Of a DNA stretch of 64,000 nucleotides, positions 4,978 to 25,090 are shown in pieces. Each line of letters begins with the position of its first letter. Within the stretch, counting starts at the first letter, position 1. The stretch lies in the NCBI GenBank assembly GCA_000310025.1, contig FN649746.1, positions 420,544 through 484,543 of the forward strand, given 5' to 3'. The notes beneath the pieces were generated by a model. The model did no database searches and was not told the origin of the DNA. It was given only the letters and a program-made list of their open reading frames with translations. A program made the position numbers and the translations under genes. This stretch comes from Ectocarpus siliculosus (lineage: Eukaryota > Sar > Phaeophyceae > Ectocarpales > Ectocarpaceae).

Positions 4978-7900
4978 CTTTTTGTTTTTCATCACGGGCG
5001 TGCAGGGGCGACCGAAGGACCAACAAGAGTATTGCATGGTCGCGTAAAAATTCCCAAGGCAAGCACCGCAAGAGGGACGGACGGAGACGAACCCTTCTGT
5101 GTGACCACGGACTGAAGCCCCTACACGGCAGAAAGGCTGTGAGTGGTGTGAGCGCTGATGATGTATAAAAAAAAATCGTGCAACGATACAGTAGGTCGAG
5201 AATGCGCCCAGTATCATCAGTACAACACAGCAAGACGCAGTCACATTCCCACTCGGAAGAAGTGCAAAGGGGCACGTTGCTCGGGGTAGGCGACCACCAC
5301 CACGACCAGGAGGTGCGAAACAGGAGTGAGATCACGGGGGAACTCCTCACGTAAGGCTGCCTCGTTCGCGGAATACCAGTTGCAGCAGCGCTCTCTTTTT
5401 TTTCAATGCACCATTAACCATATGTAAACCGAGCGTGATGCGCCCTCCTCAGGAACAAATTAGACGGACCCTCGCAAAACTTGAAAACATGTTGTTTGCA
5501 GGGAGACATACTTACTACGGCCGCGAGGAGGCCGCCTGGAGCGGAGGAAATTGTTCGAAGAGCAGCCACCAAGACGGGAAATGCCCGCACACATTTTTCC
5601 ACGGAGCTGTTACTGGCGGCGCATGATTAGGGAACCTTAGTTGTCTTCATGGTCCTCTTTCACATTCAATTTTCTAAAAAATAACAACCGACGAAGGAAA
5701 AGGTTGGGTGCCAAACCTAATACCTATCGCTGTAGGCAGTACGCCGGCTAGGGCTCTATCAGGATTAAGCGCGGTCAACACGTCATCGCTGAGGCAAAGG
5801 ATTGTTGTTGGTGGTCGTGTTGCTGCGCTTCGTTTTTGTTTTTGTTATTGTTATTCTGTTCTGATTGTTATTGTTTAAGTCATCTTCCGCTCGGTGTCGC
5901 CGAAGCTCCATACCAAGGACTCCCACGACACCTCTTCTGCGATACACTGCTGTATATGCCGTGTTTTTTCGTTTTCTTGAGTGTACTGACACTCGTGTAT
6001 AGTGACGTGTTTGCGCAAAACAAAATTTGGCTCATAACGACCGTTCGGGGTATTTAAAGTTCCTCCGAAGCAAATCTTGCCAACATTTGTCGCTAAATAT
6101 GGCCAGATACAAAAATCTGCAAGCAAACTTTGCAAAGTGGCGAACAGACCAACGACCACCTCGAACGGATACCCCGAGCATCTGTATCCCCCGCACACCG
6201 CATATACATCCAGGCCAGCTATAAAATAAACAGCAGAGGCCGAGCCTATTCGACCTGCACCGCACGGTCGTGGGTATAGAGTCATGTGCCATGTGCTCCC
6301 ACATAGATAGCGGGTTGTGTTATTACGTGTGGGTCCAAGCATACGAGCTGCTCGCTGAGAGATCGGCAGAGCGGAGATCACACAGCTTGCTGCACACACA
6401 CATGCACATACATACACACATATACCGACCGTCAGACAGTCGGGAGCTTCCGGTCGCATGGCTCACGCCCTTGGACAAGCAGATCGACAGAAACCTCTGA
6501 GGGCTTGAGGGTCTACTACTTCTGTGCGTTCTCACAGGACGCGGTTGCTCACGATCGGTTCAGGTCTTGCTTACTGCGCCTCTGCTGCCGGCTTGCGTTT
6601 GTTGCGTCTTTCTTGCACTCATCTTGCGTGGTTGCAGTCAGTATCATCCTGGTGAGACTGCTCACTCCGTGTCGGGGAAGTTCGGCAGGCTTGAGATCAT
6701 TGACTGTGGCGGGTTAGATGTGCGCCTTCCGCACCTATCTGTCTGTCCCGCTTTATTACGCTGTGCAGGTTGATGTTCTGTGGCGGGCGATGTGCTCGTT
6801 GGGCTCGATACACTTGCTGTGAGTTTACAGCACATTCAACATTCGATGCGTCTTGACGATGTGCGTGTCCGCGTCCGCAAAAGTGTTAATTTCTATCTGC
6901 GCACGGTGGAAAGACTTCATATTTTTGTAAACCAGCATCAAAATAGTAAAATTTTTGCTTCCTGCGCAAACACGTCAGTCTGCGCGATTTTTTTCGTTTT
7001 GTTGAGTGTACTGCTGTACAGGATTATTGCGGGAACATTCTTTGGCACTGTTTTCGAAAAAATTAAAAGCGCAGGTAACTGGGCCCGAGAGGTAGGTGGA
7101 GGGCTAATTCTAATTGGGGGCGACGCAACGTGAATGGGGACGGGGGCACCCAGCAACCGCATCGAGAGAGCAAGTGCTGAGTGCTCTCGAAAGCGCGGCG
7201 TGAAGAACACAAGCGAGGGAGGGTGAGAGGGAGGGCGGTCAAATAGAGTCAGTCCGCCTTTGTAGTGTTAGTGTAGGCCACCCCCGATCAATGACTCATC
7301 GCAGCCAGTTTCTACCTACCCCTGCACGCCCTTGCATTTCCAATCCGAGATCATTCAGAAGGACTCCTCTGTGGTGGTTGCCATTCTACTCCAACAAGGC
7401 TAGTCTTCCGTTCCCTCCGTGCATACTCCGCCGTATATACCTGTGGGACGTCGTTGCGCGCAAAGAGACGAAACACTGATTCAAAACTCACCGCCAAAGA
7501 GTCATCGAGTAATCTCCTGCTCTGAGCTGAGCTTGGGGTTGTCGTCGTCGAGCCGTACATGGCCACTCAGTATTTATCTCTCTCTCTCCGCCTCTCCCTA
7601 CGCGCTGTGCGAGACAGACACAAGCGCATGTGTGCTGGGCGTACTGGCGTGTAGAGCTCATAGGGTCTCCGCCAACCATACAAGCAAGGGGGTGAGATAT
7701 GATGTGTATCCTCTGCGATGCCCCCCGAGAGAGAGAGCCAGAGGCACACACACATCCAGCAGCCACACAGCCACGCAGCCAGGAAGGGGAGAGAGAGAGA
7801 GCGGAGAAATCAAATACCATGAGGGACCGATCAATGTGAGTGAGTGTGTCACGGTGGAGTAGTCGCGAAAAGCGCTTCAAATTGTGCAAGGAGGATACAA

Positions 7901-10043
7901 CTTTTTTTTTTTTCCAAGCATGATAATGGGGACCGCCGCCACGCGGCCTGTACTCGCAGACATTGGCTGTTGGGGCGTTTAGGTGGTGGCAGCCGGCGGG
8001 TGTGTCTAGCCACGTGCGATGTGATCACGACTTGGCTGTGGCACTCGATGGTGAAGATGTCGAAGTTGGTGTGTTCATCTTTCATTTCTCCGTTTCATTA
8101 GCTGTTGGCTACATACCAGAGGAGGTGGCAAGTGTAAGTGTTGCAAGCAAGACACTCCAACTTGTTGAGAGAGGACACTTCTTTTGTTCTCGTTGTTCTC
8201 GTTGGCCTATGCATGCATGGGTTTGTGGGACGTATGCATGGATTTGCGGAACAACCTTGGCGGACATGCGGACGTTGACTTGGCGGTGGTATGCCACGAA
8301 CAGGTAATAAAGCAGTCGGCAGTCCAATATTTCAATCTGCAAAAGTTGAGGATAGACTCGTTGAAATATCCCGCGATCTGAAGGCACGTGACCGAAGATC
8401 CTTCATTTTCCAGAGAGATATGTACTGCTGCAGACTCCGTGTGTGTTAAACGACATCTATCTGTGAGTCTCCCCTCTGTCTCTCCCTGAGCAAGTGCTCG
8501 CACCCCCGATGTCGATGTACTCTCCGTGCTCTCCGGCCAAAGCGTTAAAGCCTGCAGGAGTGTTGCCATGTAGACGCTGCAGAGGAATAGCCAAGGTTTG
8601 TCCCGGTATCGGTTTTCCACCGTCCAAAAGCCCGTTCTGCCTCGCGGGAGACGGGGATACTTGTGTGTGTACTGTAGACCTACCATGCAAGTTATACCTC
8701 ACGTTGCATGAGATGTCGCACCCCCTGGACCGATTTTCAAATCTCGATTACTTGGCAGGAAAACAGCAATAGTGGTGCAGGAAATGGCGGCATTGGAACT
8801 GTCTCGTCGAGAGCTTTCCGAAATGTATGCATACACCATACTTTATTTCGGCATCCTCTTCGTCGTGGAAAAACGCAAATGCGAACCAAACCAAGTTACC
8901 GTCCGTTCATCACCTCTTACAGCCCCCCCCCTCGGTCTATTATCGGATGGTGTGTGCGGTGACAACGTGTGTGGCGCGCTTCGAAATGACAGGAGGGTAG
9001 CCAAGTGCGCCACGCTCCCCAGCAACACGGCGCAGAGGGTGAGTGAGAGCATCAATCAGACAGAGGTACTTAGCCGGCTTTCAGGAGTTCTCAACTTGTA
9101 TGTGCTCTGTCAGACATGATAACATGTGAGCCACAGCAGGAGCAGCAGCAGCAGCAGCAGCAGCGTGTGCTTCAGCAGTAAAGCTCTTTCGCAGTTGCGG
9201 TGTAAGCACACCCGCGTTTGATGCCTGGTATCACCGCCTGGTGACGGAATATCCAGCAGCCTCGGCGAGAATATTAAGCTTGTTTTTGGTAGGGGGTACT
9301 TGGTGGGGTTTTAAGGGGTAGGGATACGCAAAACCGCACTCTATTTCATTAATTGATAATATTGTCCTGGCGAAGGTGATCCTGAATCTCGTGTCTTGGT
9401 CCCGCCTCAACGCATGAGTTTTCGACGCCTCCCTGTGTTGGAAAACCCCACGCCGAAGGGATGTTCCGGAAAATCATGAAGAAAATTTACCATTTTGGGG
9501 GAAAGGCACTCCGACCGTCGCCGAGAGAACGAGGAATCCGATATCATTGTCTCAATTGTGACATGGAGTCTCCCTCGTATGCAAAAGCCTGTGCAAGGGA
9601 TTTAATACCTGCGGTCGAGGCCTACACCAATCAAGTATCCTCATACCCCATCCGTCGATGTCGCATCATGTGGTGGTGCCGGTCTCTAGCCACGAGTGGT
9701 TTTCTGTTTTCGGCTCATCTACACCATCAGTTTGTAGCCGAAAATGCGGCGTATCTGTTGTTTGGACTCGCTGATTTGGGTGTTCTTTTTGTCTCGTTTT
9801 GTTTTTTCGGCGTTTGTTGCCCCGCCATTCTTCTTCATTTCTTTCTGCCCCTTGAGACGTTTCAGCGCGGCGCCTTCGTTTTGTATAGCACGCCGACAGC
9901 ACGCAGCTACCGCTGGGTCGGCTCGTCTCCCTCCCCAATTGGCCGTTTCTTTCGTACGATGATAAGGCCCGACGATGTACATGTACAATAACAACCCGTC
10001 TTGTATCCACTGACCAAAGCCATGTGCTTGACTGTTCTCACAG
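4978..10043. other. Long stretch with no proven exon
   Basis: It should contain the N-terminal exons of the SNARE (- strand) and the first exons of the ADD-SET gene (+ strand), but I could not fix either. Visible content: CT-rich sequence near 7575-7605, GA/CA-rich sequence near 7725-7805, a MITE-like core near 8790-8830 (TCTCGTCGAGAGCTTTCC), and an AGC/CAG trinucleotide run at 9139-9165. Open frames at 9461-9991 (+) and 6780-7133 (+) have no recognisable domain. Confidence 0.4.
9139..9165. repeat. (AGC)n microsatellite
   Basis: About nine AGC units in non-coding sequence upstream of the ADD-SET gene. Confidence 0.85.
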
Positions 10044-13000
10044 TATCACGAGCAGCAGGCGGAAGAGCATTTGGAGCTGGCGGCCCGGGGGAGATTGAGG
10101 TGCTTCGCATGCGGAGAAAGGCGAGTGCACTTCTCATTTACTCTTTGCTGTGTTTCGCTTTCGCCCTGCGCTGCCGAGGGGGGGGGGGGGGGGGGGGGTA
10201 CTCATAGTCGTGCATGCCGTAGTCGTTAGACCATTGACCTCGCATCCCTACAAAGCCGGGACGGAGCACGCCGGGTCCTCACCGGACCAGGCTCTAACAT
10301 CACCAAGCGCGAAGCCCCGTGAGGCGACGAGAGGGGAGGGGGGGGGTGTCACGGCGTGCTTTCGTTGCCTTGCTAATGTTTTCTTTCGTTTTCTCTCTCG
10401 CAGGGAGCTCGAATCATGGCCAGAAAGGCGATGATGCCGTCCTGTACACCGGTTGTTATTAATTGCTGTACCTTTTGTCATCGAACTCTGTGCCGTATAT
10501 TGTCGAACGTTGCACTGCAGGTCGCGGCCTTTACCACCTGTTGCCCGTGTCACGATCTTACATTACTTGCCTTATTCGTCTCAAGCTGTATCGTCCATTG
10601 GCCCCTCCGCAGCTGTCTGTTTACCTCGTTTTGTTGCAAGCTACAGTACCCCTTTTACGGCAGCACTAACCAACCCTGTCGTTCCACAGTCCCAGTCGCG
10701 CCTTTTGGTACCCTTACCCATTAGTCGCACCCCGCCGCCCGTGTGTCTCTGTGTGTGGTGCCTGCTGTTCCATGTTTTTTTCCGTGGAACGCAGCCAACC
10801 CCACAACCAGGTGAGGTGCCACCCGAAGCTGTTCGTGCACGTCTGCTCCCACTGCCACGACGTGTACCACCAGGGGGAGTTTGATGTCGCAGACGGTGAG
10901 GAGCGAGACAATGGGTTGGGTTACAGCAATGAGCGACTCCTTCTTGGTTGCAGTTCCAGCCGCAAAAAACTGTTCTTTTTTGCAAACGCCTGCTGTATTG
11001 TGCACAATTGAACACTTCCCGCAACATGCATTAGTTGTTGTTTTTTGTTCTTTTTTTTTGTTTACTTTCAAGATGGCTTGTGGTTTCTCCACGTGGCAAA
11101 GAGAGTGCTGGTGGTATCTCCGGTATCTCCACATTCTCCGTCAGATGAAGATGAGGGGGGCATGGTCACAAGTTATCTCCAAATATCTCTCCTGGTGATT
11201 GTATTGCAAGACGCATATACCTACGTACCTTTGTTTCGGTTTGTCGTTTCTTGTTGTGGCGCTTTCGTGCTCGAGACCGATCGATGTCTCGGGGTTCGTC
11301 GTCGCGAAAGACAGCCAAGCATGAAAGAGCACAGGCGTACGTCTACAGTTAGCCTCTGGTAGTACTTTTGACCGAGGGCGAGGTTCTTAGTTCCTAGGGT
11401 TATGCTAGAATTGGTTGCTATTATATCTAGGTTTTTGTGTAGGGGTTGGGTGAGGTTCTTAGTTCCTAGGGCCATGCTAGGAATGGTTGCTATTATATCT
11501 AGGTTTTTGTGGAGGAGTTCTTGGGTGACCTCACAAATAGGTGCTTAAAAGTTCTTCGATTTTGAGTGTTTCGAGGCTTTATCAATTTCTTCGCTGCCAA
11601 GTTTTGACGTGCGAGCGCCGACTACTGTAGGCACGTTTGTTTGTGTCTTTAGTTTATTGCACCTCGTCCGTTTTAGCGAATGAGAGGGATCACCAGATGC
11701 CGCACACGCCACAATAGCACCCTTCCTATCATACGATGCGGTACAAGCTGGAGACAGCAGGGTTTCATCGGTCTCGCAATTCCCAAAACTCGTCGCTAGA
11801 TCGAGCTTCTTTTTTCCCTTTTTCCTCAGCTAATAGTTGCAAACGCCACGCTGGTTTTGGGCACGTATGGTTGGACACCCATCTACTCACATCTGCGAGC
11901 CCCCTCCCCCCTTGATGAATGTTTCACCCCCCGCGTTTTTCTGCTACACGTTTTTCTGCTACACGCAGACGGGCGCGAGATGTACTGCCGGATGTGTGGA
12001 GATGGCGGAGAGCTTACTTCGTGCGACGAGCGCCAGGCGGGCACCAGAAGGCCGTGTCCATTCTCGTTTTGCCTGGCGTGCATCGAGCGAAACTTCGGCT
12101 ACGAACATGTGCGTGTGTGTGTATTTACTATTTAGCATGTAACGGCGGCGAATCGGAAAATGGGTGCGGCGATTGCCGCCTCCTACTCCCGAACATCAAA
12201 TTGAGTCACAACAAACTAGTCACCACACTAAAGAGAATGACCGCTTTGAGAAGAAAACAATTTCTGCGAAAAATTCCCTGTCGTCGTCCATTCCGCGCAT
12301 CAACGCGCCGTCGCACCATCTTCAGCGCGTCCCACTTGGTAGTTGTTTCACACCACCTAATTAGTCTATCCTGACAATTTTGTGACTCCCACCAAGCTCC
12401 CACACTGTCAACTTTGAGGATAACTCTTCTCCCCCCCCCCCCCATCCGGTCTTTGAATACAAAATAAACAACGTTTTTTCCGGGCCTACAGCAGTATGTA
12501 CGAAGATGCCTGTCCGTGCCAAGACCAGCATCCTTTTACGGTACATGGACCAATGCTTTGAGTAGGGTATATTATGTTTTGGGGGGCAATGGGTGATAGC
12601 CTCTTGAGGCTTTCTCTTGAAGAGCACACGCAAGACTTGTTATGTGTAAACTAGTGGATGGATAAAGTGCAGATGGACCCAACGGTCATGCGGTCGCAAA
12701 ACACTACCCACATCCCAATATATGCCCCAATTTTTAATGGTTGCCATCCAGCATATCCTTCGTAGTCCAATGGTTAGGATATATCGCTCTCACCGATGAG
12801 ACCCGGGTTCAATTCCCGGCGAGGGAGTTTCTTTTTCGTCGTTTCCATGCATGCTGTAACATATTGTATGTTTCTGCCATTTTCTTCAGGGCTTTCTTCG
12901 TGAATTTCTCCGCGGTAATTTTACTGCGGTAAAACCACGGTAATTACCGTTCCCCGTGATCCCGTGAAAAATTATATTTACCGTTAACGCCCAAACCGGT

Positions 13001-16000
13001 AACGAACAATTTGAGTTTTCCCATTACCGTACAAAAGTTTACCGCGCAAAAAAATCGTTTTTCCCGTGCTTTCGAGTTACCGCGGAGTACATTACCGTAA
13101 GAACAATAAGATCCCAATTACCGCACAGAAACACCTAGTGGATTCCTGAAGGTCATAATAAAATGACCGCTGCCTTTCCAGGCCACCAGGTGTATCCGTC
13201 CCATAGACCTCTGGAAACGGAGAGTTCGAGTCCCATTCTCTCTTTTTTCTGTCATCTCTTTTATTTTTCTTGAAGGTTTTTTTTCGGGTAAGACCCATGT
13301 TTATGGTCGCCAAATCTTTGAAAAAAATCTTCAAATGTTATCAAACATTTGCGTGCGAATATCTGCCAGAGGAACATTTGAGTACCGTTTTTATGGGCAA
13401 AAAAATCTTTATCGTGTGGTTTTCTCGAAATGCATCGCACGTGCGGCGGGAATCGTGGTCTACTGCTACCAAACGATTTGTGACAGACAAACCACAAATG
13501 CGTCATGGAAACTGAATGTAACGAGCTCGCAAAGGGCTCCCCACAACCCTTGATGCACTGAGCTGATGCTGTGCCCGCCAATATGTGGCGATAGCGCTCC
13601 GTGCGTGCGAGAAAAAATGTTCTCGGTGTCAAAAAGAGACCAAAACGTGCGTCAGCGCTTCCCAACGGCAAAAAGTCGACCGCTTGACAGGACATGTGAG
13701 TACAAAACTATCCAGCTCTCGTCCTCTAGACCATCGATTCATGTTTTATCTTCTTGGGTGTCTTCTCCATCAACGACTCTCATCCGGTTGTGCGTGGGTT
13801 AGCAGTGGCCGCGCTCAGCCGGCAGGGAGGCACATCGTTGTGCGCGCAACGTTGTGGACACAACGTTTTTTTCGGTCTATTTTTTCACTTGAATATAGAG
13901 GGCTTGTTCCTCCGTCCCAAAAAAGACTTTTTCAACACATCGAGTTCACAGCGACGCGCCTCCCTGCCTGTTGAGTACGTCCACTGCTGAACCACGCACA
14001 CCCGGATGAGAGCCGTTGATGGAGAAGACACCCAAGAAAACAAAACATGAACCGATGGTCTAGAGGACGAGAGCTGGATAGTTTTGTGCTCACCTCTCCT
14101 CTCAAGCAGCCGACTTTTTGCCGTTCGGAGACACAAACCACGCTTTCTCCGTGCCCTCCAAACCACCCCTGTCTGTTTGTTTTTTTGTGCACGCTTGACG
14201 AGCTCCCGCCATGTATCAGCCGGCAAAACATTGACACGGTGACTCTAGGGTTGCCCGGATCCCTCTATGAGCTTGCTACGTTGAGTGTGCGCTGCGCAGT
14301 GGTTGGTGTTTAGGACGGAAGGGGCGGTCGGCTACTAATCTCGCCGCTCTTGGGAAACATTTTCGCGACCTGCCCCATTTCAAAATGTTTGAGAATATTT
14401 TGCCGAAGATTTTCTCCCATAAACAGTGAAACAAAATCTTTGTCCGCAAATGTTTGAAAATATAAACATTTTCGCAAAGATTTGGCGACCATAAACATGG
14501 GTCTAATGTGCTTTTTTTTTTTTTGCCGTTCAGACGTGTCATGGTGTGGTTTACTGTACAACTTATACTGTGGTAACCAGTCACCGTACAAAATGCACAT
14601 TTCTGTGCATTACCGTGATGGCTGGTTACCGTACAAGAAAATTACCGTGGTGACCAGTTGCCGTACGGAATTGCCGTGGTGACCACTTACCGTACGGAAC
14701 TTACCATGGTGACCAGTTGCCGTACGGAATTTACCGTGGTAGCCAGTTACCGCCCAAGTATTACTGTACTGTGCCGTGGTGGCCAGTTAACGCCCAAAAA
14801 ATGCCGTATTGTTCCGTGGTTTTTGGTTAACGCGGGAAATGATGCCGACATGAAAAACCGTTAACGAAGAAAGCCCTGATTTTTTTTCTCCTTTGCTCTC
14901 AAGAGCGACTGTTCCACGTGGAATATTCTATTACCATACAACAGGACATCTCGTTTAATTATTTTCTCGCTTTTGGCTCAAACAACATGGAATAGTGTGA
15001 CTGTTCCGCGCAAGGATGACACACAGCCGGCACAAGCCATGTTCATTTTAGACACAAACTAAAAAAGTGTAGTGTAGAACGCGTCTCACCACGGAAAATG
15101 GGGGAACTGTCACCACAATCATAGGACGAAAAAAAAAAAATCGACCGCGCTAACTGGTGACCAATGAAAAGACGTCAGTCTCAGCGCGGTTGAAAACACA
15201 AAAACACCTGTAAATGCCATGAATGGGACCCCGTGCGGGGGCGGCATGCATGTGTGTGTGCGTGTGTTTCTTTTTTGCTAGCGTCGACGGCGCTAAGCGG
15301 CTCACCAGTGGAAATACGTCAGTCTCAGTGCGTGTGTGCGTCTTTATTGTTAGCATCGACCGCGCTACCCGGCTGGCCAATGAAAAGACGTCAGTCTCAC
15401 TGCCGCTGAATACAGAATATGCTTCTAAATATGTGTGTATTGTCATCGGCCGCGCTAACCCGCTCACCAATCGAAAAGACGCCAATCCCAGTGCGGTTAA
15501 AACGGGAACGGTGCTACCCATGGGCCACAATCTGGACCCCGCGTGTGCATACGTGTTTGCAGAGAGTTCATTGCAGCCACAAGTTCAAGTGCTGGATCTG
15601 CGACGACGGGCCCATGGAGCAGCTCAGGAGGCGCATCCCTGGCTACGAGCACAACAGCAAGAGCGTTCTCACCAGCCTCATCATGCAGGTTCCGAAGTGT
15701 CGAGGAGGAGGAGGAGGAGGAGGAGGAGGATGGGGGAGTGCCGGCAAGGATTCTAAAGCGGAGTCGCATGTCGGAAAAAGCGCGGTTACCGATGGTACCA
15801 GTGCTGCTGCTTCCAAACCAAGGCCCAAGAAGAAAGCGGCATCGTCATCATCGTCTTCGGCATCTACGGTATCCCTGTCGGAGACGGAATCGGACCGACC
15901 CTTGCCCCCTCCCTGTCGACGACAGCAGCAGCGTCGAAGGCAGCAGCCGCGGCCTACGGGGTCCGGCGGGGGGGCGCAACAACCGGCCGCTAGTCGCCGG

Positions 16001-19000
16001 CGGTGCCGGGCGTTCGAGTCCGGAGACGAAAGCTGTGCCTCCGAGGGGTTTCCAGACTTGGATGGGGGTGAGGACGGAATGGGCGGCACCGACAAGGATA
16101 GGAATGGCCAGCATGGCAACGGCAGCAGCGGGGTGGCGCCAGCGGTGTGCGGGGCTCCGCTCGCCATAGCTCCCCCTCCCGGGGGCCCCGGCAAAGGCGC
16201 AACCCTATTGGACGTTCCTTACTCCCCGCCTCGTGGAGGCGGCGGCGGTGGCTACGTCCATTCCTGGAAGAACAACCCACCGGATGAGCAAGAGGATGGA
16301 GAAGGAAGTGCCGCGGGGGGTATGAGCACGGACTCCAGCGACAGCGACGACAACAGCACTTGCGGTGACGGCGGCTACAGCCGTAGGCGGAGGAGGGGTC
16401 GGGAGGGGAAGAGGAACACGGCTGGGGGAGGCAGCGCCGAGGATGGTGTGTTCCAGTGGGACAGGCGGCAGTTGATTAACGACCTCTCTCGCGGGCTTGA
16501 GAACGTCAAGATTCAGGTTCGTCCATTTGGCGGTCATTCACAGAACACAATACCGCAAGGATGCGAGAGATGTAACCCTCCCTAGAAGCTCGATTGCTCC
16601 ACAATCAAGTGGGTGCGGCAAGAGCCCGATGCGTCTCTACGGAAAGCCCTCCACGAGATGTTTCCAAAACCACATTTTTGGCGTTGGTACACGCTTGATT
16701 GTGGAGCAATGGAGCCTTGAAACCGGTTTTTTGGGGGGTGCCACCTCTGGCATACCTACGGCATCCCGAATACCCGCCGCAAACCCAACCCCACTACTGG
16801 GGTCGAGGTCGAGGAGGCGGGCTAGCTCGCTGGCATCCACCCGTATCTACCGTGAAGATTAGGGAGAGCCCAGTTTCCATGGGAATATGTTGCCGAAAAT
16901 TTAGGGGTCGGAACCATCTCGTCGGGAACTTCCGAAACTTTTCACATGATTCGTTCGTCCTCTTCGTGGAGTAATCGAGCTATGAAAATCGATCCGGGGT
17001 GTGTGGTATCATGTGTCACTTACGGTACTACAGTGTAGTTCTCCTTATTTACACCCTGTCTACATAGCGCACCTTCCTATACACGTATGAATTCTCCGAG
17101 AAAGCGATTACTCCCAACGGGTCATCCCCCGAATCGGGGACCCCAGATCATCGGAACGAAAAAGCCTGTTGGGCAGTTCGACGGTTTCAGTATGTTACAC
17201 AACGGTTTGGCACCGCTACACATCGAATCAAACCTGTATTTGGTGCTTGTTTAAGGGGAAATGATCCGCTAGCAAGTTCGAGGACAAGCCCCGACTCTTG
17301 TACCACCAGCACTGGAGGCAGGCACTAAACACCCTCGATAAATGTTCTGGTATGTGTGTGAGGGTCCTCACAGTCGTGCATGCCGTGGTCGTTTGACAAT
17401 TGACCTCGCATCACTACAAAGCCGGGACGGAGCACACCGGGTTCTCACCGGACCAGGCTCTCACATTACCTAGCGCGAAGCGCCGTGAGGTATGCGGCGA
17501 GTCGCATGGAGGGTGCGCTGCATCCTGCTAAGGGTGTTCGGCATATTGTGCTTACCTCCGTGCAACGGTGTTCTGGTGGGGGGGGGTGTTATCTGTGGTC
17601 CCATCGGGTGCAGGTGTGCAACGAGGAAGATGAGGAAAAGCTTCCGTTTTTCCGGTACGTGACCGGTTACGTCATGGGGGGAGACGTCCATCAGAAGAAG
17701 GATCCAGATGATATGGTGAGAGAGAGAGAGAGAGGCTGCCCGATTCGTTCAGTCTGGCCCATCAGGAGGCATTATAGTACGTGATTTGCTTTGTAAGTGG
17801 TGGATAGTGGGTCCAGTTTTTCAAGATCGGTTAGCGCTATGCGGTGGCATCAGCACACGACCATGGTTAAGCAGTGCGGGAAGGGGGTGTTTCGAGAGAA
17901 GAGCGGCCGGAAACATGCCCACCGCTGCTGTGTGAAGGCTGTTGGTCTACTCGGTTCGATGAAGATGTCGAACATGTCAAACCTCCGCGGATGGTGCTAT
18001 GTACCCCCGAGCAGCAGTAGTAGATAATCGAAACGAGGACCGTCCTTCCCCAAACTCCAGCAACTAGAACCCCGCCGGGAATGCGGTTCAACCGTTCGAC
18101 CATGAACCACTTGTGACTTGTGACGCCGGTTCGTCTTGACACAACACACCGCACTCCTGTCATTGTCCGCCACTCGGCCCGAACGGGTGCACAAACGCGA
18201 CAAAAAACGCCGCCGTCATCGTCCAGTGGGCCCGCACTGCTGCACAAACGTTGCACGAAAACGCCTCCTCAACATTTTTTTTGTATTCAATATTTTTTTT
18301 GTTTCAATGATTCGGTTTCAGGTGTGTTGCGACTGCACCGACGGTTGTAGAGACCCCAACCTCTGCGCCTGCCTACGGCTGCGAGCGGGGAAGGCGGGAT
18401 CGGTGTACTTAGCCGACATCGGCGGCACCGGCGGCGGCGGCAGCGGCGGCGGGGGCGGCGGGGGCGGCGGCGCGGCGGCGGAGACGTCGGTCGAGGAAGA
18501 GAAGTCCGGTCGGCGACGGTTTTACAACGATGACGGCCTGCTTCTTCATCTCCCGGACGCGATCTTCGAGTGCCACGCGGGGTGAGCCGGTGTCCGTCGA
18601 GTCTAGTGAATCGGGGTCTGTTTGGCCTGTCTGCTTGCTCTGCTTGCTTTGCTTGCTCTGCTTGCTTTGCTTGAGATGCTTGAGATGCTTGCGGGTTTTT
18701 TGTTTGTGTTTTGGGTCCGTTCTGAACGTGGAGCGATGGGGGAACGTGGGGCACAACCGCGTACAACGTTTTTGTTATTGTTCCCTCGCCACGCGTGTCG
18801 CCTAGTGCGGGTGATGTTTATGTGATGGCTGGTGTGAAACGAATGACAGACAAGCTTGATCTCGGCACAAGCAGCTCAATGAGCGAAGCACCTCTCAAGA
18901 CTTGCTTCTCGATCGACCACGAATGTTGAACGTGCTTGGGCACCACCTGGTGCCACGACGCCGCGTTTACGATGACGACGAAATGTCCCTTCTTGTCGCC

Positions 19001-22000
19001 GATTTTGCAGCGCCCCCCTTTCTCTGTTAACTCTTGCTTTGTGTTGTGTGCACGCCGCCTCGCCACTGATGTTTTTTGTTATGTTTTTTGATACGAAGCG
19101 TGTTTTTTGTTATGTTTCTTGTGATGTTTTTTTTTGCGAAGGGTGTTTTTCGTTGTGCTTTTTGTTTTGTTTTCTTGTGATGTTCTTTTGTTGTGTTTCG
19201 TTTCGCTGTTCCGTTTTTCAGGTGTGCGTGCAACCCGCGGAGGTGCAAGAACCGTGTCGTGTCCCGTGGCGTCCATCTGCCCCTCCAGGTACCTTTACAG
19301 CCCACGCTTGTCTTCTGCCAAGAAGCGGTGTGATGTGCTATTGCACGCTGCTTCTGTCTAGAGCCGAAGCGCGTTGTGACCATCTCCGTCACCCCCTCCC
19401 TCGCGTCTCACCCTGTCGTTCGCTATGAAGCGGCGTGACCGTCTAGGTACATTGCACACCATTTTTATCTCTACCGTTAGGAAGCGGTGTGGCCGGCTCC
19501 CTCATCAGCTCGCTCGCTCTCGCCTCCCTCTGGCTAGCTTGGTGCTCTCCCTGCACCTGCCGCGAGTCTATCTCCAACTTGCCGCCCTGCCCTGCGTGCG
19601 TCCCGTATGTCCCGCTCTCGCGAGTATCAAGCTTGTCGTAAACGAAAGCAAGAACATCCCGATTCTCCCACTCACTGTGAAGACTTTAACCCACCCCCTT
19701 CGACTGTGGTTATATCTCGAATGAGTAGTCTTCTTTCATTTTTTGTATATTTTCTAACCCATCCCCTTCGACTGTTGCTATATCTGGAACGAATAGTCTT
19801 TCTTTCATTGTATATTTGCTAGCCCATCCGGTTCAACTGTAGGTATATCTCGAACGAGTAGTTTTTTCTCTCATTGTATGTATATAGGCATCCCCTTCGA
19901 CTGCTGTGGCTATATCTCGAACGGGTAGTCTCTCTTTCATTGTACGTGCATTTTCTATTCCATCTCCTTCGACTGCTGTGGTTATATCTCGAAAGTCCTT
20001 TCATTGCACGTATATTTTCTAGGAAACTCGATCATCTTGCTATCGTTTTCGTTGCAGCAAAGAAGCTAACCAACCTCGTCGCCGTCCTCCGTCCGTCCCC
20101 TCCGCAGGTATTCCGATGCGCGGAATCCGGCAAAGGGTGGGGCCTTCGCTGCGTGGAACCCATCCCCGCGGGTTCGTTCGTGGCGTGCTACCTGGGGGAG
20201 GTGCTGACGGATAGATCCGTTGACGACCGTGGGAGGCAGACCCACGACGACTACGTGTTCGGCCTTGACTTCGCCAAGTGCGCCGCCAGGCCGGGCCACA
20301 GCGGTGGCAGCAGCAGCAAGTCAAGCAGGAGGCGCTCGATAGCGATGACATCCTCGAGCAATGCTGATCAGAGCAATTGGGGCTTGCGGTTTCCGTTGAC
20401 AGCGCCTACTGGTGCTGCTTCTGCTTCTTCTTCTCCTTCTCCGCGGCGTAGTGGCAGCAGCGCCGCCTCAGCCGCCGCCGACGGCGGAGCCCCCGGGCGG
20501 GGGGAGGGCTCGGCGTCGCCCGCTGTGTCGTTAAAGAGCCCTGTAAGGAAAAAAACACGAACTTCGCCGAGTTCGCCGCTAGCTGCAGCCGCAAGAACAG
20601 GCGCAGGGGCAAGAGCGGGAGGAGGACTGTCTAAGGATCAAGAGGAAGCCTTTGGTGACTTCGTGGTCTCCCCGAACAGGGAGAAGTTGCTGGAAGGGTT
20701 CGTCGGCGCTACGGGGTGTATGAGCCGCGAGCGGGCGGCGTACTTCCTGCGGGGCGCTGGCGGCGATCTGGCGGTGGCGGTCAACCACTTCCTCGACGCG
20801 CCGGCTGGTGCCGGTGCCGGTGATGCTCGTGGCGCCGCTGATGATGCTTATGCTGGTGGTGCTGGTGCTGATGCTGATGCTGGTGCTGATGCTGATGCTG
20901 GTGCTGATGCTGATGCTGATGCTGATGCTGTTGCTGATGCTGCTGCTGGTGTTGGTGTTGGTGAGGACAAGGGGCCGTGTGCAGACGACGATGCAGATGA
21001 CGATGTGGGGGCCCAGTCCCCGGCTCCCCCCCTCCCGTGCGAAGAGGCGAAGCAAGCGGGTGGCGGTGCTACGGCGGGGGGCGGCGCTGCTTCCTCGAGA
21101 AGGACTACGGTGTCGCCGCCGAGTTCTCCCGCGGAGGTGCTCTGGCAAGAAGTGGGAGACGACTTGGGTGGTGACGAAGCGGTGACGGAGGCGGGGGCGG
21201 GAATGCTCGTGCCTCCCTGGAGGCACGGCAGCGTGGCGATAGTGGCGGAGCCCCTCACGAAGAACGTGGTACCGTCTGGGGCGACGTCGCCGCCTTCGTC
21301 TTCCGCGACACCCCCCCCATCGGGTGAGGAGGCTGCAGCCTGCGGAGCCCCCTTGCTGATGGAGGCTTTTTGTGTCCTTGGCTTTTGTTCGAACGTGCCA
21401 GTCGGTTTGTTTGCGGGGTTACCTTTAGAGGTCGTGTGTATGCTGTTGACCAAGCGGTGTTGTGTTTCATGTGTTTTGTACCTTGAACATGCGCTGCAAA
21501 TGTGTCTGTTCTACTCTTGCTGTGATCCCTGTCTCTTCCTTTCTTGTTTCCTCTCTGCCTCTTTGCCCTCCATCTCTCTCCCTCTGATTGTCTCTTCCTC
21601 ATGGCTCTGTCTGTCTGCCTGCCTCTCTCTCTCTCTCTCTCTCTCTCTAATTCTCCCCTTCTAATCTCTCCCCCTCCTCTACGCGCACACGGCCGTTGCC
21701 CATGTTGCTGTTCTCTTTCGCGCTTGCCACGCGAAACGACGACGGCGTAGACGAACTTCCCGACGCCAAGCGCATCAGGAGGGGGGGCGACCTGCACGAG
21801 TCGTTGTGCGAAGTCGTCGACCTCGCAGGGCACCCCCCTACAGCAGTTTCGTCGCCGGGGCCCTCACGCGGGTCCGGAGGGAGCGGTGGGCAGTGGCTGA
21901 CACGCCGGAAAGACAAGACGCCTCGAGAATCTTCGACCTCGAGCATGGCCACAGCAGCAGAAACAGCTGTGAGTGTGGCCACAGCAGGTGTGAGTGTGGC

Positions 22001-23958
22001 CACAGCAGCAGAAACAGCTGTGAGTGTGGCCACAGCAGGTGTGAGTACGCCCACAGCAGCAGAAACAGCTGCTGTGAGTACGCCCACGGCAGCAACAAGA
22101 GCGGCACAAGAAGAAGTGAAGGATGGGGAGGGGCTATTCGCGGAGATTGACCTCTCTCTGGAGGACGAGTCGACCGCCGCGTCGCAGACCCGACCATCAC
22201 CCAAACACGCTGCTGTCTCTACCGCCGAAGAAGCCCATCGGACGCCGCCGCCGAGTCGGAAGATCGCCGCGCGGACCCACGCTGCTGCGGTCGAAGGCCC
22301 CGGTGTTGACATCGCCGCAGCCGGTGCCGGTGGTGGTGGTGACGAGGTCGCTGTCGATGTCGATTTCGAGGGGGAGGCGTGGACTCCGTCTTCGCCGCGC
22401 TCGGATGTGTCGCCGGAGGTGAGTCCGCGGGAAAGGGCGCACCTGACGGCAATAGTGTCCCGAGGCTGAATCGGACACGCACAGCACGCGGACCACGACG
22501 GACGGCACCCAGACCCGCGCAAGCGAGGGCCGACTTTTCCGGGCCTGGACACCAGTTCTTTGTCCCGACCCTATTCCGTTGGCCCCCGTTTCACTGTTGA
22601 ATTCATTCTGCTGACCCCCCCCCCCTGGCCGCTTCCGTTGGCTCCCGTGTCATTGTGTATTTATTCCACGGAACCTCCCTCTTCCGGCCGTTTTCCGTCG
22701 GCCATGTCGCTGTGTATTTTTTCCGCGGACCCCCGGAGGCAAGATGGCGGTGGACGCCAAGGACTTCGGCAACGTGGCGAGATTCATGAACCACAGCTGC
22801 GACGGAAACCTGGTCAAGAAGGTGAATGGGTGGATGGCGGCTCTCCCGCCCGCACGTGGCATCTCCCCGTTTTCCCCTTTTCCGTGACACATACAGGGAC
22901 CCGATAGAAAAAAGAGGGGCGGTGGCATTTCCTCACAAGTAAACATTGTGTTTTCGGTTAGCACGAAAACAGAGGGGTAAGCGTGCTGTTTGTTTTTGTG
23001 GGCTCTTTGCCGTTTGAGACTACAGGAGAGATAGGGTACTGTGTAGACCAGAGGAGGTTTTCGTGTGACGACGTCGACAGCAAACAACACGCTGATGTGG
23101 TCCTACGCCTTCTTTGCCGTCGAGCACGTTGCGATTGTTTCGCTACAGAGCACGCCACAACTTGACAACGTTGGAGTCAAGCCACAACTTGACAACGTTG
23201 GAGTCAAGCCACAACTTGACAACGTTGGAGTCAAGCCACAACTTGACAACGTTGGAGTCAAGGAAATCCAAAACAGAGAGATTTAAGAACTTGGCCACAA
23301 GAACAGGTGCCCAGTTAAGAACCTTACAATGAAACCTGCGCAACGAATAGCCAAAGAATCCTACGCTGAAACCTATGTGGAAACCTATGTGGTCGATGTT
23401 GGGTTCCTTACCCTACAGAGGAAAAATAGCAAGCCTCGAGACAAGATGGTGGAAGAGGTTCTTGCGTGGTGGCGCCCTCTACATACAATGTTTTTTCCCT
23501 GTTGGGGGTGCTGTTGTCGCTTTTGTGTTCGGTCGAGAGATGCCCTTTTTGCCCTCAGGCTCGGGTTGCTTTGGAACAAAACCTTTGATGCTCTGTAGGC
23601 CCGCTTCTCGATACCGAGAAGAAGTCATTTCGTGAATTGACTATCCGATAACCATCCAAAGTGCAAGAGATTTCTTGGCATTTCTTCGTCATTTACAAGG
23701 CGGATCTTGCACGCACCTTCAGCAACTCAGCAGCGAAGCAAGTCACCCCCGCGCCAATCAACACGGGCTTGTTTGCGGTGCGATTTTTTTTCGGCAGATG
23801 GTTTTCGTCGAGGGCCACGACTTTCGCATCCCGCGGGTGGCGTTCTTCTCTCTCGAGAAGATACAGGCGTACGAGGTACGTGGGGTCGAGAAGAGGTAGA
23901 GGTAGCGAACGACTTGATTGTTCTCTGTCTGTCTGTCTGTCTGTCTGTATCTCTCTCT

Positions 23959-24029
<71 letters not shown>

Positions 24030-25090
24030 TCCCTCTCTCTCGCTCTCCCTCTCTCCCTCTCTGTCGCTGTCGCTCTCTCTCTCTCGTTCTGTGTGTGTGT
24101 CTCTCTCTCTCGGTCTCTCTCTCTCTCGCGCGCGATGCGCGTGCGGCTTTGACGACAACGGCCGTCGACACCACAGAGTGGAAAATGTCGTAAGCCTCTC
24201 GGGCTGAAAAGGCAGGCACAAAACGCGAGATGGTCGGTGCAGACGGGGTTGGCAGGCAGGAGACAGCAGGACGCTATGTCCCATGGGTGTTGTTGTGTTT
24301 GGTTGTTGTTGTGTTTGATTGTTGTTGTGGTGTTGTTGTTGTTGTTGTTATTGTTGTTGCTTCTGTTGTTGTTGCTGTTACTGTAGTTGCAGGTGGTGGT
24401 GATTGTGGTGAGGCCTTTTAATTGTGGTGGTGGTGTTGTGGTTGTCGTTGTTGTCCACGTAGAGAGCCCAACTTTCGACAGGCTTTCACGAAGCATTCGC
24501 ACAACCAGGCACTCCACAAACAGCGAGATCAGCGAAACTGTGTAATAGCACCGTCGCGTGCTTACGTTGCTATCGTCCGGCGACCGCCGCCATTCCAAGC
24601 GATTCGGATGCGTAGTAGACGGGCGTTGCGGTGCACCTGAAGTGACGATATACCCGGCGTGTCACAAAAGCATTGATATGTATGAAGCTTACGCTCGATA
24701 CCGCTTCAGGTGACGCCATACGTGGAGGAAATTCGACGCAATGAACGCATGCATATGTACGAACAACTACGCAACGTGAGGAAGGCAATGCGGTGCAACT
24801 AAACCGGTTCATCCCCAACCCCCATGCGGTAACAACCGCGATGCACACGCCCCCGCACCTGATTCATCCCTGTGAAACGTAGCCTGGGCCGGCGAAAATC
24901 GCTCCGTCCGGGCGTTGTAGGGACGCGAGGTCTATACGACTACGGCATGCGTTTACATGAGTACACCCCCACCCCCGCCCACACCAAACAGGAGCTTACG
25001 TACGACTACAACTACAAGGTCGGTTCGGTGGAGGGGAAGAGCCTGGTTTGCCGCTGCGGGGCCCCGTCTTGCCGCGGGATGCTGCTTTGA
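10044..25090 (+). CDS. ADD-finger SUV39-type histone H3K9 methyltransferase (ADD / pre-SET / SET / post-SET)
   Basis: Probable histone H3K9 methyltransferase of chromatin. Mapped exons: 10044-10120, 10795-10895, 11969-12108, 15563-16516, 17614-17715, 18322-18581, 19222-19288, 20108-21323, 21751-22418, 22744-22821, 23798-23875 and 24992-25090 (TGA). All phases match and give 1279 residues; 5' exons are missing. Residues 20-119 form an ADD finger: CFACG, then [35 protein letters not shown] and CWIC, in ATRX/DNMT3 order. A Ser/Gly/Pro-rich linker follows. Pre-SET starts at DLSRGLENV (about 412) and carries nine cysteines (CDC...C...CAC, then C...CAC...C) split by a Gly-rich loop. SET begins at GKGWGLR with YLGEV (about 597), is interrupted by about 570 residues, and resumes with NHSC (1211-1214) and YDY (1251-1253). 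Post-SET is CRCGAPSC. All expected catalytic and zinc residues are present, so an active enzyme is likely. H3K9 specificity is inferred from the SUV39 family. Confidence 0.9.
10180..10198. repeat. Poly-G tract
   Basis: An uninterrupted G run inside the first mapped intron of the ADD-SET gene, directly followed by an inverted copy of the dispersed repeat also seen at 4083-4165. Confidence 0.8.
11380..11516. repeat. Two-copy 72-bp tandem repeat
   Basis: Two direct copies beginning GAGGTTCTTAGTTCCTAGGG at 11380 and 11452, each ending near ATATCTAGGTTTTTGTG. A diverged relative lies at 51955-52050. The site is an intron of the ADD-SET gene. Confidence 0.8.
12756..12827 (+). tRNA. tRNA-Glu(CTC)
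   Basis: A full cloverleaf of 72 nt without intron. The acceptor stem pairs TCCTTCG with CGAGGGA (one G-U), followed by discriminator G. The D arm contains AATGGTTAGGA. The anticodon stem TATCG/CGATG closes the loop CTCTCAC, giving anticodon CTC. The T arm is CCGGG-TTCAATT-CCCGG. A box and B box (GGTTCAATTCC) are intact, so it should be transcribed by RNA polymerase III. No run of four or more T lies directly at the 3' end; the first T-rich stretch (GTTTCTTTTT) starts right after it. The gene lies on the sense strand inside a 3.45-kb intron of the ADD-SET gene. Confidence 0.92.
12886..14879. mobile_element. 2-kb foldback (long inverted repeat) element
   Basis: Ends are inverted: TCAGGGCTTTCTTCGT at 12886 returns as its complement ending at 14879. 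Further matching blocks are collinear about one centre: 13290-13318 with 14480-14508, 13696-13730 with 14058-14093, and 13769-13850 with about 13938-14020. The whole element is thus a near-palindrome with arms of about 950 bp and a loop of about 90 bp. Subterminal parts consist of degenerate 30-bp repeats rich in TTACCGTGGTGACCAG and CCGTACGGAA. No transposase is visible, so it would be a non-autonomous element. A T-rich duplication at the borders is possible but ambiguous. Mirror-image open frames inside it (13585-13974 + and 13932-14237 -) are a product of the palindrome, not genes. Confidence 0.85.
15135..15505. repeat. Tandem array of a dispersed about 95-bp repeat
   Basis: Four diverged units share the core CGACCGCGCTAACCGGCT, then GACCAATGAAAAGACGTC and AGTCTCAGTGCGG. 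Single copies also occur at 27326-27376, 51640-51680 and 56098-56140. The trailing part of the unit (GGGACCCCGTG-type block) also precedes the 3' splice site at 15562. Confidence 0.8.
16588..16715. mobile_element. 128-bp hairpin MITE
   Basis: Terminal inverted repeats of about 24 bp (GCTCGATTGCTCCACAATC against its complement, few mismatches) bound a short core that contains ACGGAAAGCCCTCCACGAGA. Related ends or cores are at 25366-25480, 37700-37780 and 61030-61060. It lies 71 bp inside an intron of the ADD-SET gene. Confidence 0.75.
18628..18690. repeat. Intronic CTTGCTYTG minisatellite
   Basis: Short units of about 10 bp (GCTTGCTCT / GCTTGCTTT, then GCTTGAGAT twice) just downstream of the exon ending at 18581. 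Confidence 0.8.
19686..20030. repeat. Tandem array, about 70-bp unit, five copies
   Basis: Units carry CCCTTCGACTG, TATATCTCGAACGGGTAGTC and TTTCATTGTA. Single related copies are seen at 52115-52150 and 58680-58725. The array fills most of the intron before the exon at 20108. Confidence 0.85.
20685..20806 (+). other. UBA-like module inside the SET-domain insertion
   Basis: Residues about 760-800 of the methyltransferase form the only ordered-looking part of the insertion. The pattern is three amphipathic helices: [10 protein letters not shown], then [16 protein letters not shown], then [11 protein letters not shown]. The FV-x-x-TG turn, the A-x-x-FL helix, the GGDL turn and the final A-V-x-x-FLD match the UBA-like domain of the p47/UBXN family. 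Such domains bind ubiquitin in several proteins; binding here is inferred only. It is flanked on both sides by Ala/Ser/Gly/Pro-rich sequence. Confidence 0.6.
20845..20960 (+). repeat. In-frame GCTGATGCTGGT repeat coding Ala-Asp-Ala-Gly
   Basis: A 6-bp unit repeat within coding exon 20108-21323 gives alternating Gly/Asp and Ala residues directly after the UBA-like module. All units are multiples of three bases, so length change would keep the frame. Confidence 0.9.
21945..22097 (+). repeat. In-frame coding minisatellite in the SET insertion
   Basis: Units of ACAGCAGAAACAGCTGTGAG and TGTGGCCACAGCAGGTGTGAG alternate, coding Thr/Ala/Val-rich peptides like [15 protein letters not shown]. It lies within coding exon 21751-22418. 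Confidence 0.9.
23154..23261. repeat. Exact 27-bp tandem repeat, four copies
   Basis: Four identical head-to-tail copies of a 27-bp unit starting GCCACAACTTGACAACGTTG. It is intronic, between the exons ending at 22821 and starting at 23798. The perfect identity points to recent expansion. Confidence 0.95.
23921..24130. repeat. (CTGT)n / (CT)n microsatellite
   Basis: CTGT units pass into a long CT run, with some GT and CG interruptions, in the last intron of the ADD-SET gene. Long open frames on both strands here are repeat artefacts. Confidence 0.95.
24293..24440. repeat. (TTG)n-rich microsatellite
   Basis: Degenerate TGTTGT/TGGTGG-type trinucleotide tract in the last intron of the ADD-SET gene. 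Confidence 0.85.

What the first reader, a model, noticed from the sequence alone, without database searches (positions are those of the whole stretch)
10044..25090. ADD zinc finger fused to a SUV39-type SET methyltransferase in one gene
Twelve exons with matching phases link a full ADD finger (residues 20-119) to a nine-cysteine pre-SET, SET and post-SET. ADD domains are established in ATRX and DNMT3, where they read H3K4me0 together with H3K9me3. SUV39-type enzymes write H3K9 methylation, and their usual reader partners are chromodomains, ankyrin repeats or SRA domains. I know of no described ADD-SUV39 fusion. Inference: this would be a self-contained read-write enzyme that spreads H3K9 methylation only where H3K4 is unmethylated.
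Basis: partly seen in the sequence, partly recalled or inferred. Interest (0 to 1): 0.88.

Follow-up and report, generated by a model that had tools for sequence, protein, structure and literature searches.

The report
Brown-algal SETDB1-like enzyme with ADD reader
A gene of the brown alga Ectocarpus joins a histone-tail-reading zinc finger of the ATRX/DNMT3 kind to a split SETDB1-like histone methyltransferase that also carries a ubiquitin-binding-type domain, which is surprising because brown algae are reported to have largely given up the mark such enzymes write.

Summary
The 12 exons at 10044-25090 join in phase into one 1279-aa frame. They match a deposited Ectocarpus siliculosus protein, "similar to SET domain, bifurcated 1" (P0001), whose model starts two short exons upstream. 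The finger is a true ADD domain: a three-homologue profile hits ATRX at E 7e-13, and the best 24 of 50 PDB rows are ATRX or DNMT3 chains. One 954-bp exon holds both the last ADD zinc ligands and the start of the pre-SET. Two diverged homologues keep the same order.

The SET is split by several hundred residues, as in SETDB1, which is the nearest outside family in the profile search. A UBA-like domain follows the SET N-half in 10 of 10 relatives recognised. SETDB1's Tudor and MBD domains were not found.

One inference fails: the ATRX residue that contacts H3K9me3 (Y203) is V/V/I here, so the finger should read H3K4me0 only.

Best reading: an H3K4me0-guided SETDB1-type methyltransferase, probably for H3K9. 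This sits badly with reports that brown algae largely dispense with H3K9 methylation (PMC13076208). Activity, substrate and binding are untested. New variant of a known kind.

The parts
7819..7836 (+). putative first coding exon of the deposited model (MRDRSM); gene-model only, weak
   Evidence: match of P0001 residues 1-6; no homologue support
8994..9037 (+). putative second coding exon (RVAKCATLPSNTAQR)
   Evidence: exact match of P0001 residues 7-21
10044..10120 (+). exon: N-terminal helix and first Cys pair of the ADD GATA-like finger; GC donor
10795..10895 (+). exon: second Cys pair of the ADD GATA-like finger
11969..12108 (+). exon: ADD PHD-like finger, Cys 1-6 of 8
15563..16516 (+). bridging exon: last two ADD cysteines and C-terminal ADD segment (15563-15688), low-complexity linker, and N-terminal edge of the pre-SET (about 16472-16516)
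   Evidence: single 318-codon open frame; P0001 omits 15689-15922 and 16070-16234 in frame, P0002 keeps sequence there
17614..17715 (+). exon: pre-SET, N-terminal part
   Evidence: Pfam PF05033
18322..18581 (+). exon: pre-SET cysteine cluster (CxCx3Cx5CxC), Gly-rich spacer, sixth pre-SET Cys
19222..19288 (+). exon: last three pre-SET cysteines (CxCx4C) and start of SET
20108..21323 (+). exon: N-terminal half of SET (20108-20284: [15 protein letters not shown]) followed by the split-SET insert
   Evidence: PF00856; alignments
20669..20803 (+). UBA-like domain (PF14555) inside the SET insert
   Evidence: 29.5 bits over cut-off 21.8; follows the SET N-half in 10 of 10 relatives recognised; three-helix model, block pLDDT 81-91
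21751..22418 (+). exon: rest of the split-SET insert, low complexity
22744..22821 (+). exon: C-terminal half of [14 protein letters not shown] motif
23798..23875 (+). exon: C-terminal half of SET ([11 protein letters not shown])
24992..25090 (+). exon: [16 protein letters not shown], post-SET CxCx4C, stop

Best explanation
It is a brown-algal histone lysine methyltransferase of the SETDB1 type in which the N-terminal Tudor and MBD readers of animal SETDB1 are not found and an ADD domain stands in their place, with a UBA-like domain inside the split SET. Shown by sequence: the gene, its domain order, its conservation in two diverged homologues, and intact presumed zinc ligands and catalytic motifs. 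Inferred: the ADD binds the H3 N-terminus when K4 is unmethylated and so places or activates the SET on H3K4me0 tails, barring active promoters, as the DNMT3 ADD does for DNA methylation. The SET then methylates H3K9. The UBA senses ubiquitin on H3, on the enzyme itself or on a partner, a counterpart of the ubiquitin control known for SETDB1 and Clr4.
For: Architecture. In the profile search the three rows after the first eight (all family) are animal SETDB1, E 4e-63 to 8e-60. Over the catalytic composite the six SETDB1-type rows share 44-47% with P0001 and 43-48% with P0003; all other families, SETDB2 included, 35-43%. The C-terminal string DY[NS]Yx[VI]GSV occurs in 4 of 4 family rows and 6 of 6 SETDB1-type rows and in none of the other 13 rows, one of which (SETDB2 P0057) is truncated before it. 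Split-SET spacing is 471-640 residues in the five family rows with both motifs, 193-451 in 16 SETDB1-type rows (P0014-P0029), 136 in one SETDB2, and 52-85 in the SUVH, SUVR, EHMT and P0065 rows where both motifs were found. SET-C, post-SET Zn motif and catalytic Tyr align with EHMT1. The 12 presumed ADD Cys ligands are invariant in 3 of 3 complete homologues. DNMT3A contacts K4me0 through D529, D531 and Q534 (PMC6316889, passages): the D531 position is D and the Q534 position is E in 3 of 3. The SETDB1 insert is activated by monoubiquitination (PMC7354471, passages); Clr4 responds to H3K14ub (PMC12407891, abstract).
Against: No binding, activity or expression data. H3K9 methylation in Ectocarpus is reported absent (PMC12477816, PMC13076208, passages) or weak and on blots only (PMC7784034, passages), so the predicted product is scarce at best. 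The D529-equivalent is A. The SETDB1 link is not firm: a tree groups the family with SETDB1/2 at support 62/42 and a larger one leaves it unresolved; a single-sequence search with the SET N-half listed plant SUVR2-type proteins, not SETDB1, as first outside rows (4 of 13 hits); the best solved structures are EHMT1 and SUVH6, with no SETDB1 row among the 60 shown of each. Neither AlphaFold model covers the whole ADD or the SET with confidence.
Confidence: 0.55

Rival explanations
1. The enzyme is active but its substrate has shifted: it writes another mark (for example H4K20me3, which is linked to repeats in Ectocarpus) or methylates non-histone proteins, and the ADD only targets it to H3K4me0 chromatin.
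For: H3K9me is near-undetectable while H4K20me3 is associated with repression and repeats in Ectocarpus (PMC7784034 and PMC12477816, passages); the NHSC-xPN signature of most relatives is NHSC-DGN here.
Against: Nearest relatives of the catalytic part are SETDB1, EHMT, SUVR and SUVH proteins, mostly named as H3K9 enzymes; H3K9me1 or me3 was detected in two brown algae and in the sister alga Schizocladia (PMC13076208).
Confidence: 0.2
3. The ADD acts as an autoinhibitory lid on the SET that is released by the H3K4me0 tail, rather than as a recruitment module (a sub-case of the best explanation, not exclusive of it).
For: This is how the DNMT3A ADD works (PMC13031684 and PMC6316889, passages).
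Against: No interface can be predicted here; the linker is 127 to 336 low-complexity residues.
Confidence: 0.25
4. Two neighbouring genes, an ADD protein and a SET protein, are merged by gene prediction.
For: No transcript data here; the deposited models differ in low-complexity stretches, and six of ten relatives' models start downstream of the ADD zinc ligands (P0005-P0009, P0101).
Against: One open exon (15563-16516) spans the end of the ADD and the start of the pre-SET; P0001, P0003 and P0004 keep the order, and P0002, which starts inside the ADD, also joins it to the pre-SET.
Confidence: 0.02
5. The finger is an ordinary PHD, not an ADD.
For: The Pfam ADD model matches Ectocarpus below its curated cut-off.
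Against: Full-length profile match including the GATA-like half to ATRX (7e-13) and the DNMT3 family; the first PHD-only row is at 0.0078; Cys pattern C4 + C8 invariant.
Confidence: 0.01

Closest known systems
SETDB1 / Eggless (KMT1E)
   Same: pre-SET, split SET with a long insert, post-SET; the closest catalytic sequence in the profile search and composite (43-48%); C-terminal DY[NS]Yx[VI]GSV string; ubiquitin theme in the insert
   Different: no Tudor or MBD match (Pfam; both present in P0014 and P0029); ADD at the N-terminus instead; UBA-like domain in the insert; insert longer than in the 16 rows measured
ATRX ADD
   Same: best sequence match of the finger over both halves, N-terminal position in a chromatin protein
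   Different: the K9me3-contact Y203 is V/V/I, D207 is G, and E218 is M/I/I; an 8-residue insertion between Cys ligands of the PHD half; no SNF2 helicase match
DNMT3A/3B/3L ADD
   Same: ADD tied to a methyltransferase; predicted H3K4me0-only reading; acidic K4 site partly kept
   Different: tied to a SET enzyme, not a DNA methyltransferase; the D529-equivalent is A
SUV39H/Clr4, EHMT, SUVH, SUVR
   Same: same SET superfamily with pre-SET and post-SET; SUVR2-type proteins are the first outside rows for the SET N-half alone

Membership tests
[quoted passage not shown]
   PF05033 65.7 bits and PF00856 61 bits over cut-offs; 6 of 6 members match both models at the search threshold E 0.1
SETDB1 (split-SET H3K9 methyltransferases) | long insert splitting the SET at the conserved position | tested here: met
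   471-640 residues (5 family rows) against 193-451 in 16 SETDB1-type rows and 52-85 in SUVH, SUVR, EHMT and P0065 rows with both motifs
SETDB1 (split-SET H3K9 methyltransferases) | grouping with SETDB1 by sequence and tree | tested here: inconclusive
   profile search and composite identity favour SETDB1; tree support only 62/42, unresolved in the 23-row tree; SET N-half alone lists SUVR2-type first
SETDB1 (split-SET H3K9 methyltransferases) | N-terminal triple Tudor and MBD | tested here: not met
   no Tudor or MBD match in 6 of 6 members, of which P0002 and P0005 are incomplete; found in P0014 and P0029. Hence filed as a variant, not as SETDB1 itself
SETDB1 (split-SET H3K9 methyltransferases) | H3K9 methyltransferase activity | not testable with these tools
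   no assay; motifs intact
ADD domain | GATA-like C4 finger followed by a C8 PHD-like finger, matching ATRX/DNMT3 | tested here: met
   12 invariant Cys; profile E 7e-13 to ATRX, best 24 of 50 PDB rows are ADD proteins
ADD domain | curated Pfam ADD cut-off | tested here: not met
   18.8 bits against 25.7 for ADD_ATRX in Ectocarpus; scores of the other two members not shown, best E 2.8e-4. I read this as a sensitivity limit; the profile search carries the identification
ADD domain | three-dimensional ADD fold | tested here: inconclusive
   only the GATA-like half is predicted with confidence (block pLDDT 78-90, residues 31-70); the fold searches were filled by the UBA part
ATRX-type H3K9me3 reading | aromatic K9me3 contact (ATRX Y203) | tested here: not met
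   V/V/I at the aligned position, gap-free between cysteines; role of Y203 from PMC7764450 and PMC12900691 passages
UBA-like domain | match over the Pfam cut-off and three-helix fold | tested here: met

The most novel reading that the evidence does not exclude
Brown algae did not lose H3K9 methylation but rewired it. A SETDB1-type writer lost its K9me-reading Tudors and MBD, as DNA methylation was lost, and gained an H3K4me0-reading ADD and a ubiquitin-reading UBA. Heterochromatin would then be set by the absence of active marks plus a ubiquitin signal instead of by copying existing K9 methylation, giving a sparse or stage-restricted mark that bulk mass spectrometry and ChIP have missed.
Probability: 0.3. 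Interest if true: 0.8.

Novelty: new variant of a known kind. Interest (0 to 1): 0.62.

Why it matters
Brown algae are an independent origin of complex multicellularity, and a 2026 survey describes them as having lost PRC2 and DNA methylation and calls H3K9 methylation largely dispensable there (PMC13076208; abstract, sections 6 and 13, and passages seen). A conserved, apparently intact SETDB1-type enzyme with its own predicted H3K4me0 reader gives a named gene with which to test whether H3K9 methylation is truly lost or only rare and differently targeted. If the predictions hold, it would be the first case known to me of an ADD domain guiding a histone methyltransferase and of a UBA-type domain inside a split SET; my paper searches listed none, but they covered an open-access library in part.

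Tried and rejected
My first gene model had an extra exon (12492-12540, with a second GC donor). None of P0001-P0004 has it and it was dropped; searches used that model and one search aligned it, the later ones did not.

Family searches of the own genome with Pfam ADD_ATRX and Pre-SET found nothing, but their controls were also silent, so they say nothing about absence. The protein search found only this one ADD locus (4 of 4 matches, one per exon).

Ordinary PHD, merged neighbouring genes and a plain (unsplit) SUV39 SET were considered and rejected.

The check for ADD domains in other listed homologues through precomputed Pfam labels is weak, because the family's own members carry no ADD label either; only 120 of 278 hits were listed, and only the 7989 candidates sharing most words were scored.

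Tree: rows P0033, P0034 and P0062 were dropped because my motif search failed on them, and I had removed P0031 from the list after crashed. In one search I also left out the second Ectocarpus gene and P0065. In one search rows lacking either motif have no spacing value.

Structure: two predictions of P0001 gave mean pLDDT of 35 and 37. The PHD half of the ADD and the SET were not usable. No ADD or SET chain is among the rows shown in the fold searches (50 shown in each); a few RING-type rows appear at E 0.6 or worse, and I did not see which part of the model they cover.

Pfam on 20 of the 58 open frames of 170 aa or more (the 58 include frames inside this gene) gave one frame with a partial, below-cut-off kinase match. 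NCBIfam gave only a below-cut-off L31 match. Paper searches listed no paper on an ADD-SET or brown-algal SETDB1 protein by title or abstract start. The library is open-access only, long result lists were seen in part (for example 40 of 971, 8 of 51), and supplements could not be read.

Full report
WHAT THE WINDOW IS. The window lies in contig C21 (420544-484543) of a 189.5-Mb genome. The gene's deposited protein, P0001 of Ectocarpus siliculosus, maps onto the window by exact peptide matches exon by exon, so the organism is Ectocarpus (class Phaeophyceae).

THE GENE. Twelve exons from 10044 to 25090 join in phase to 1279 residues and a stop. One intron (10121) starts with GC. P0001 skips four in-frame low-complexity stretches; the model of another Ectocarpus species, P0002, keeps sequence there, so their status is open.

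THE FUSION. Exon 15563-16516 alone runs from the last pair of ADD cysteines (KCWIC) to the first residues of the pre-SET ([13 protein letters not shown]), with no stop in 318 codons. P0003 and P0004, two unnamed EukProt proteins that I take to be other brown algae by inference, carry ADD, pre-SET, split SET and insert in the same order. Between P0001 and these two the ADD is 70% and 62% identical over 148 gap-free columns, the SET halves 74-84%, and the linker and insert 40-47% of the columns that could be aligned. Of the ten family members recognised among the listed hits (P0001-P0009, P0101), four show the ADD (three complete, P0002 partial); the models of the other six begin downstream of its zinc ligands and say nothing either way. 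The search with the ADD part returned five proteins among 95 candidates, all of this family.

THE FINGER. A single-sequence search hits ATRX at E 2e-9. A three-homologue profile hits ATRX at 7e-13 over both the GATA-like and the PHD-like halves, and DNMT3L, DNMT3B and DNMT3A next; the best 24 of 50 PDB rows are ADD proteins, and the first ordinary PHD row (CHD4) is at 0.0078. Pfam's ADD_ATRX model matches 3 of 3 members, but for Ectocarpus below its curated cut-off, which fits the fact that the precomputed Pfam labels of these proteins list no ADD. All 12 presumed zinc-ligand cysteines are invariant in the three complete homologues.

WHAT THE FINGER SHOULD READ. The stretch between the second and third cysteine pairs aligns with ATRX without gaps. 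Position Y203, the single aromatic K9me3 contact in ATRX (PMC7764450, passages; mutating it weakens binding, PMC12900691, passages), is V, V and I in the three homologues. D207 is G in all three, and E218 is M, I and I. I placed these positions by the spacing Y203, D207, D208, E218 given. On the DNMT3A side, K4me0 is bound by D529, D531 and Q534 (PMC6316889, passages). Placed by the D529-D530-D531 string and the DNMT3B alignment, the equivalents are A, D and E in all three. I infer H3K4me0 reading without K9me3 reading.

THE WRITER. Pre-SET and SET pass Pfam cut-offs. Against EHMT1 the cofactor motif, NHxC, catalytic tyrosine and post-SET CxCx4C are kept; the nine pre-SET cysteines are present and invariant in the alignment. 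The SET is split: 471-640 residues lie between the GWG and DAxxGN motifs in the five family members where both were found, 193-451 in 16 SETDB1-type rows (P0014-P0029, several of them unnamed or 'hypothetical' but with MBD, pre-SET and SET), 136 in one SETDB2, and 52-85 in the SUVH, SUVR, EHMT and P0065 rows where both motifs were found. In the profile search the three rows after the first eight family rows are animal SETDB1. Over the catalytic composite SETDB1-type rows share 43-48%, other families 35-43%. Against this, a single-sequence search with the SET N-half listed plant SUVR2-type proteins as first outside rows, the best solved structures are EHMT1 and SUVH6 with no SETDB1 row among the 60 shown, a tree puts the family with SETDB1 and SETDB2 only weakly (62/42), and a 23-row tree leaves it unresolved. 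I therefore call it SETDB1-type by architecture and overall similarity, not by proven phylogeny. Tudor and MBD domains were not matched in 6 of 6 members scanned and are present in two animal SETDB1-type proteins scanned alike.

MECHANISM. Most likely the ADD holds the enzyme on H3 tails whose K4 is unmethylated, the SET methylates a lysine, by family most likely H3K9, and the UBA tunes this by ubiquitin. Shown: gene, domains, conservation, intact motifs. Inferred: binding, substrate, gating, ubiquitin. Whether the ADD recruits the enzyme or releases autoinhibition, as in DNMT3A (PMC13031684, passages), is open.

CONFLICT WITH THE LITERATURE. A 2026 survey calls PRC2, H3K9 and DNA methylation largely dispensable in brown algae, but detected H3K9me1 in Desmarestia herbacea and Schizocladia and H3K9me3 in Undaria (PMC13076208; abstract, sections 6 and 13, and passages). 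Earlier Ectocarpus work saw weak H3K9me2/3 on blots, nothing usable by ChIP-seq, and noted methyltransferases with novel domain structures (PMC7784034, passages). A transposon paper states that H3K9me1/2/3 is absent (PMC12477816, passages). A 2021 review calls the status inconclusive and mentions an EHMT2 homologue (PMC8566409, passages). None of the passages I saw mentions this gene or an algal ADD. Supplementary gene tables could not be read. The genome holds a second, unsplit pre-SET/SET gene on contig C474, so this enzyme need not be the only candidate H3K9 writer.

VERDICT. A real, conserved ADD plus split-SET methyltransferase: a new variant of the SETDB1 kind, with a testable role in a lineage thought to have little use for its mark.

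Noticed in passing
window 13291-14504: A MITE-like terminal-inverted-repeat element (36-nt ends, 94% complementary; inner 211-nt hairpin, 83%) lies in the intron between the exons ending at 12108 and starting at 15563. A 280-bp inner piece has 40 scored copies at 97-100% identity in the genome (92 candidates), four of them, this one included, with a full-score identical match, so it probably moved recently.
   Followed up: partly
window 12756-12827: An intact-looking tRNA-Glu (CTC) gene lies on the same strand inside the same intron.
   Followed up: no
L026 (C474:112500-122400), about 5150-8560: A second Ectocarpus pre-SET/SET/post-SET gene with an unsplit SET (KGWGAY, GNVSRFFNHSC, CLCGSRLCRG), a second candidate H3K9-type writer; its other domains were not examined.
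   Followed up: partly
P0101 (ena, 631 aa, contig of 1.03 Mb): A divergent relative with the SET N-half (67% identity) and the UBA-like domain (over cut-off) but a different insert, from an unnamed source; it may date the UBA gain.
   Followed up: partly
window 10120-10121: A GC-AG intron (AAAG|gcgagt) after the first ADD cysteine pair, supported by the deposited protein.
   Followed up: no
window 51103-51639: An open frame with a partial protein-kinase match below the Pfam cut-off, perhaps an exon of a kinase gene.
   Followed up: no
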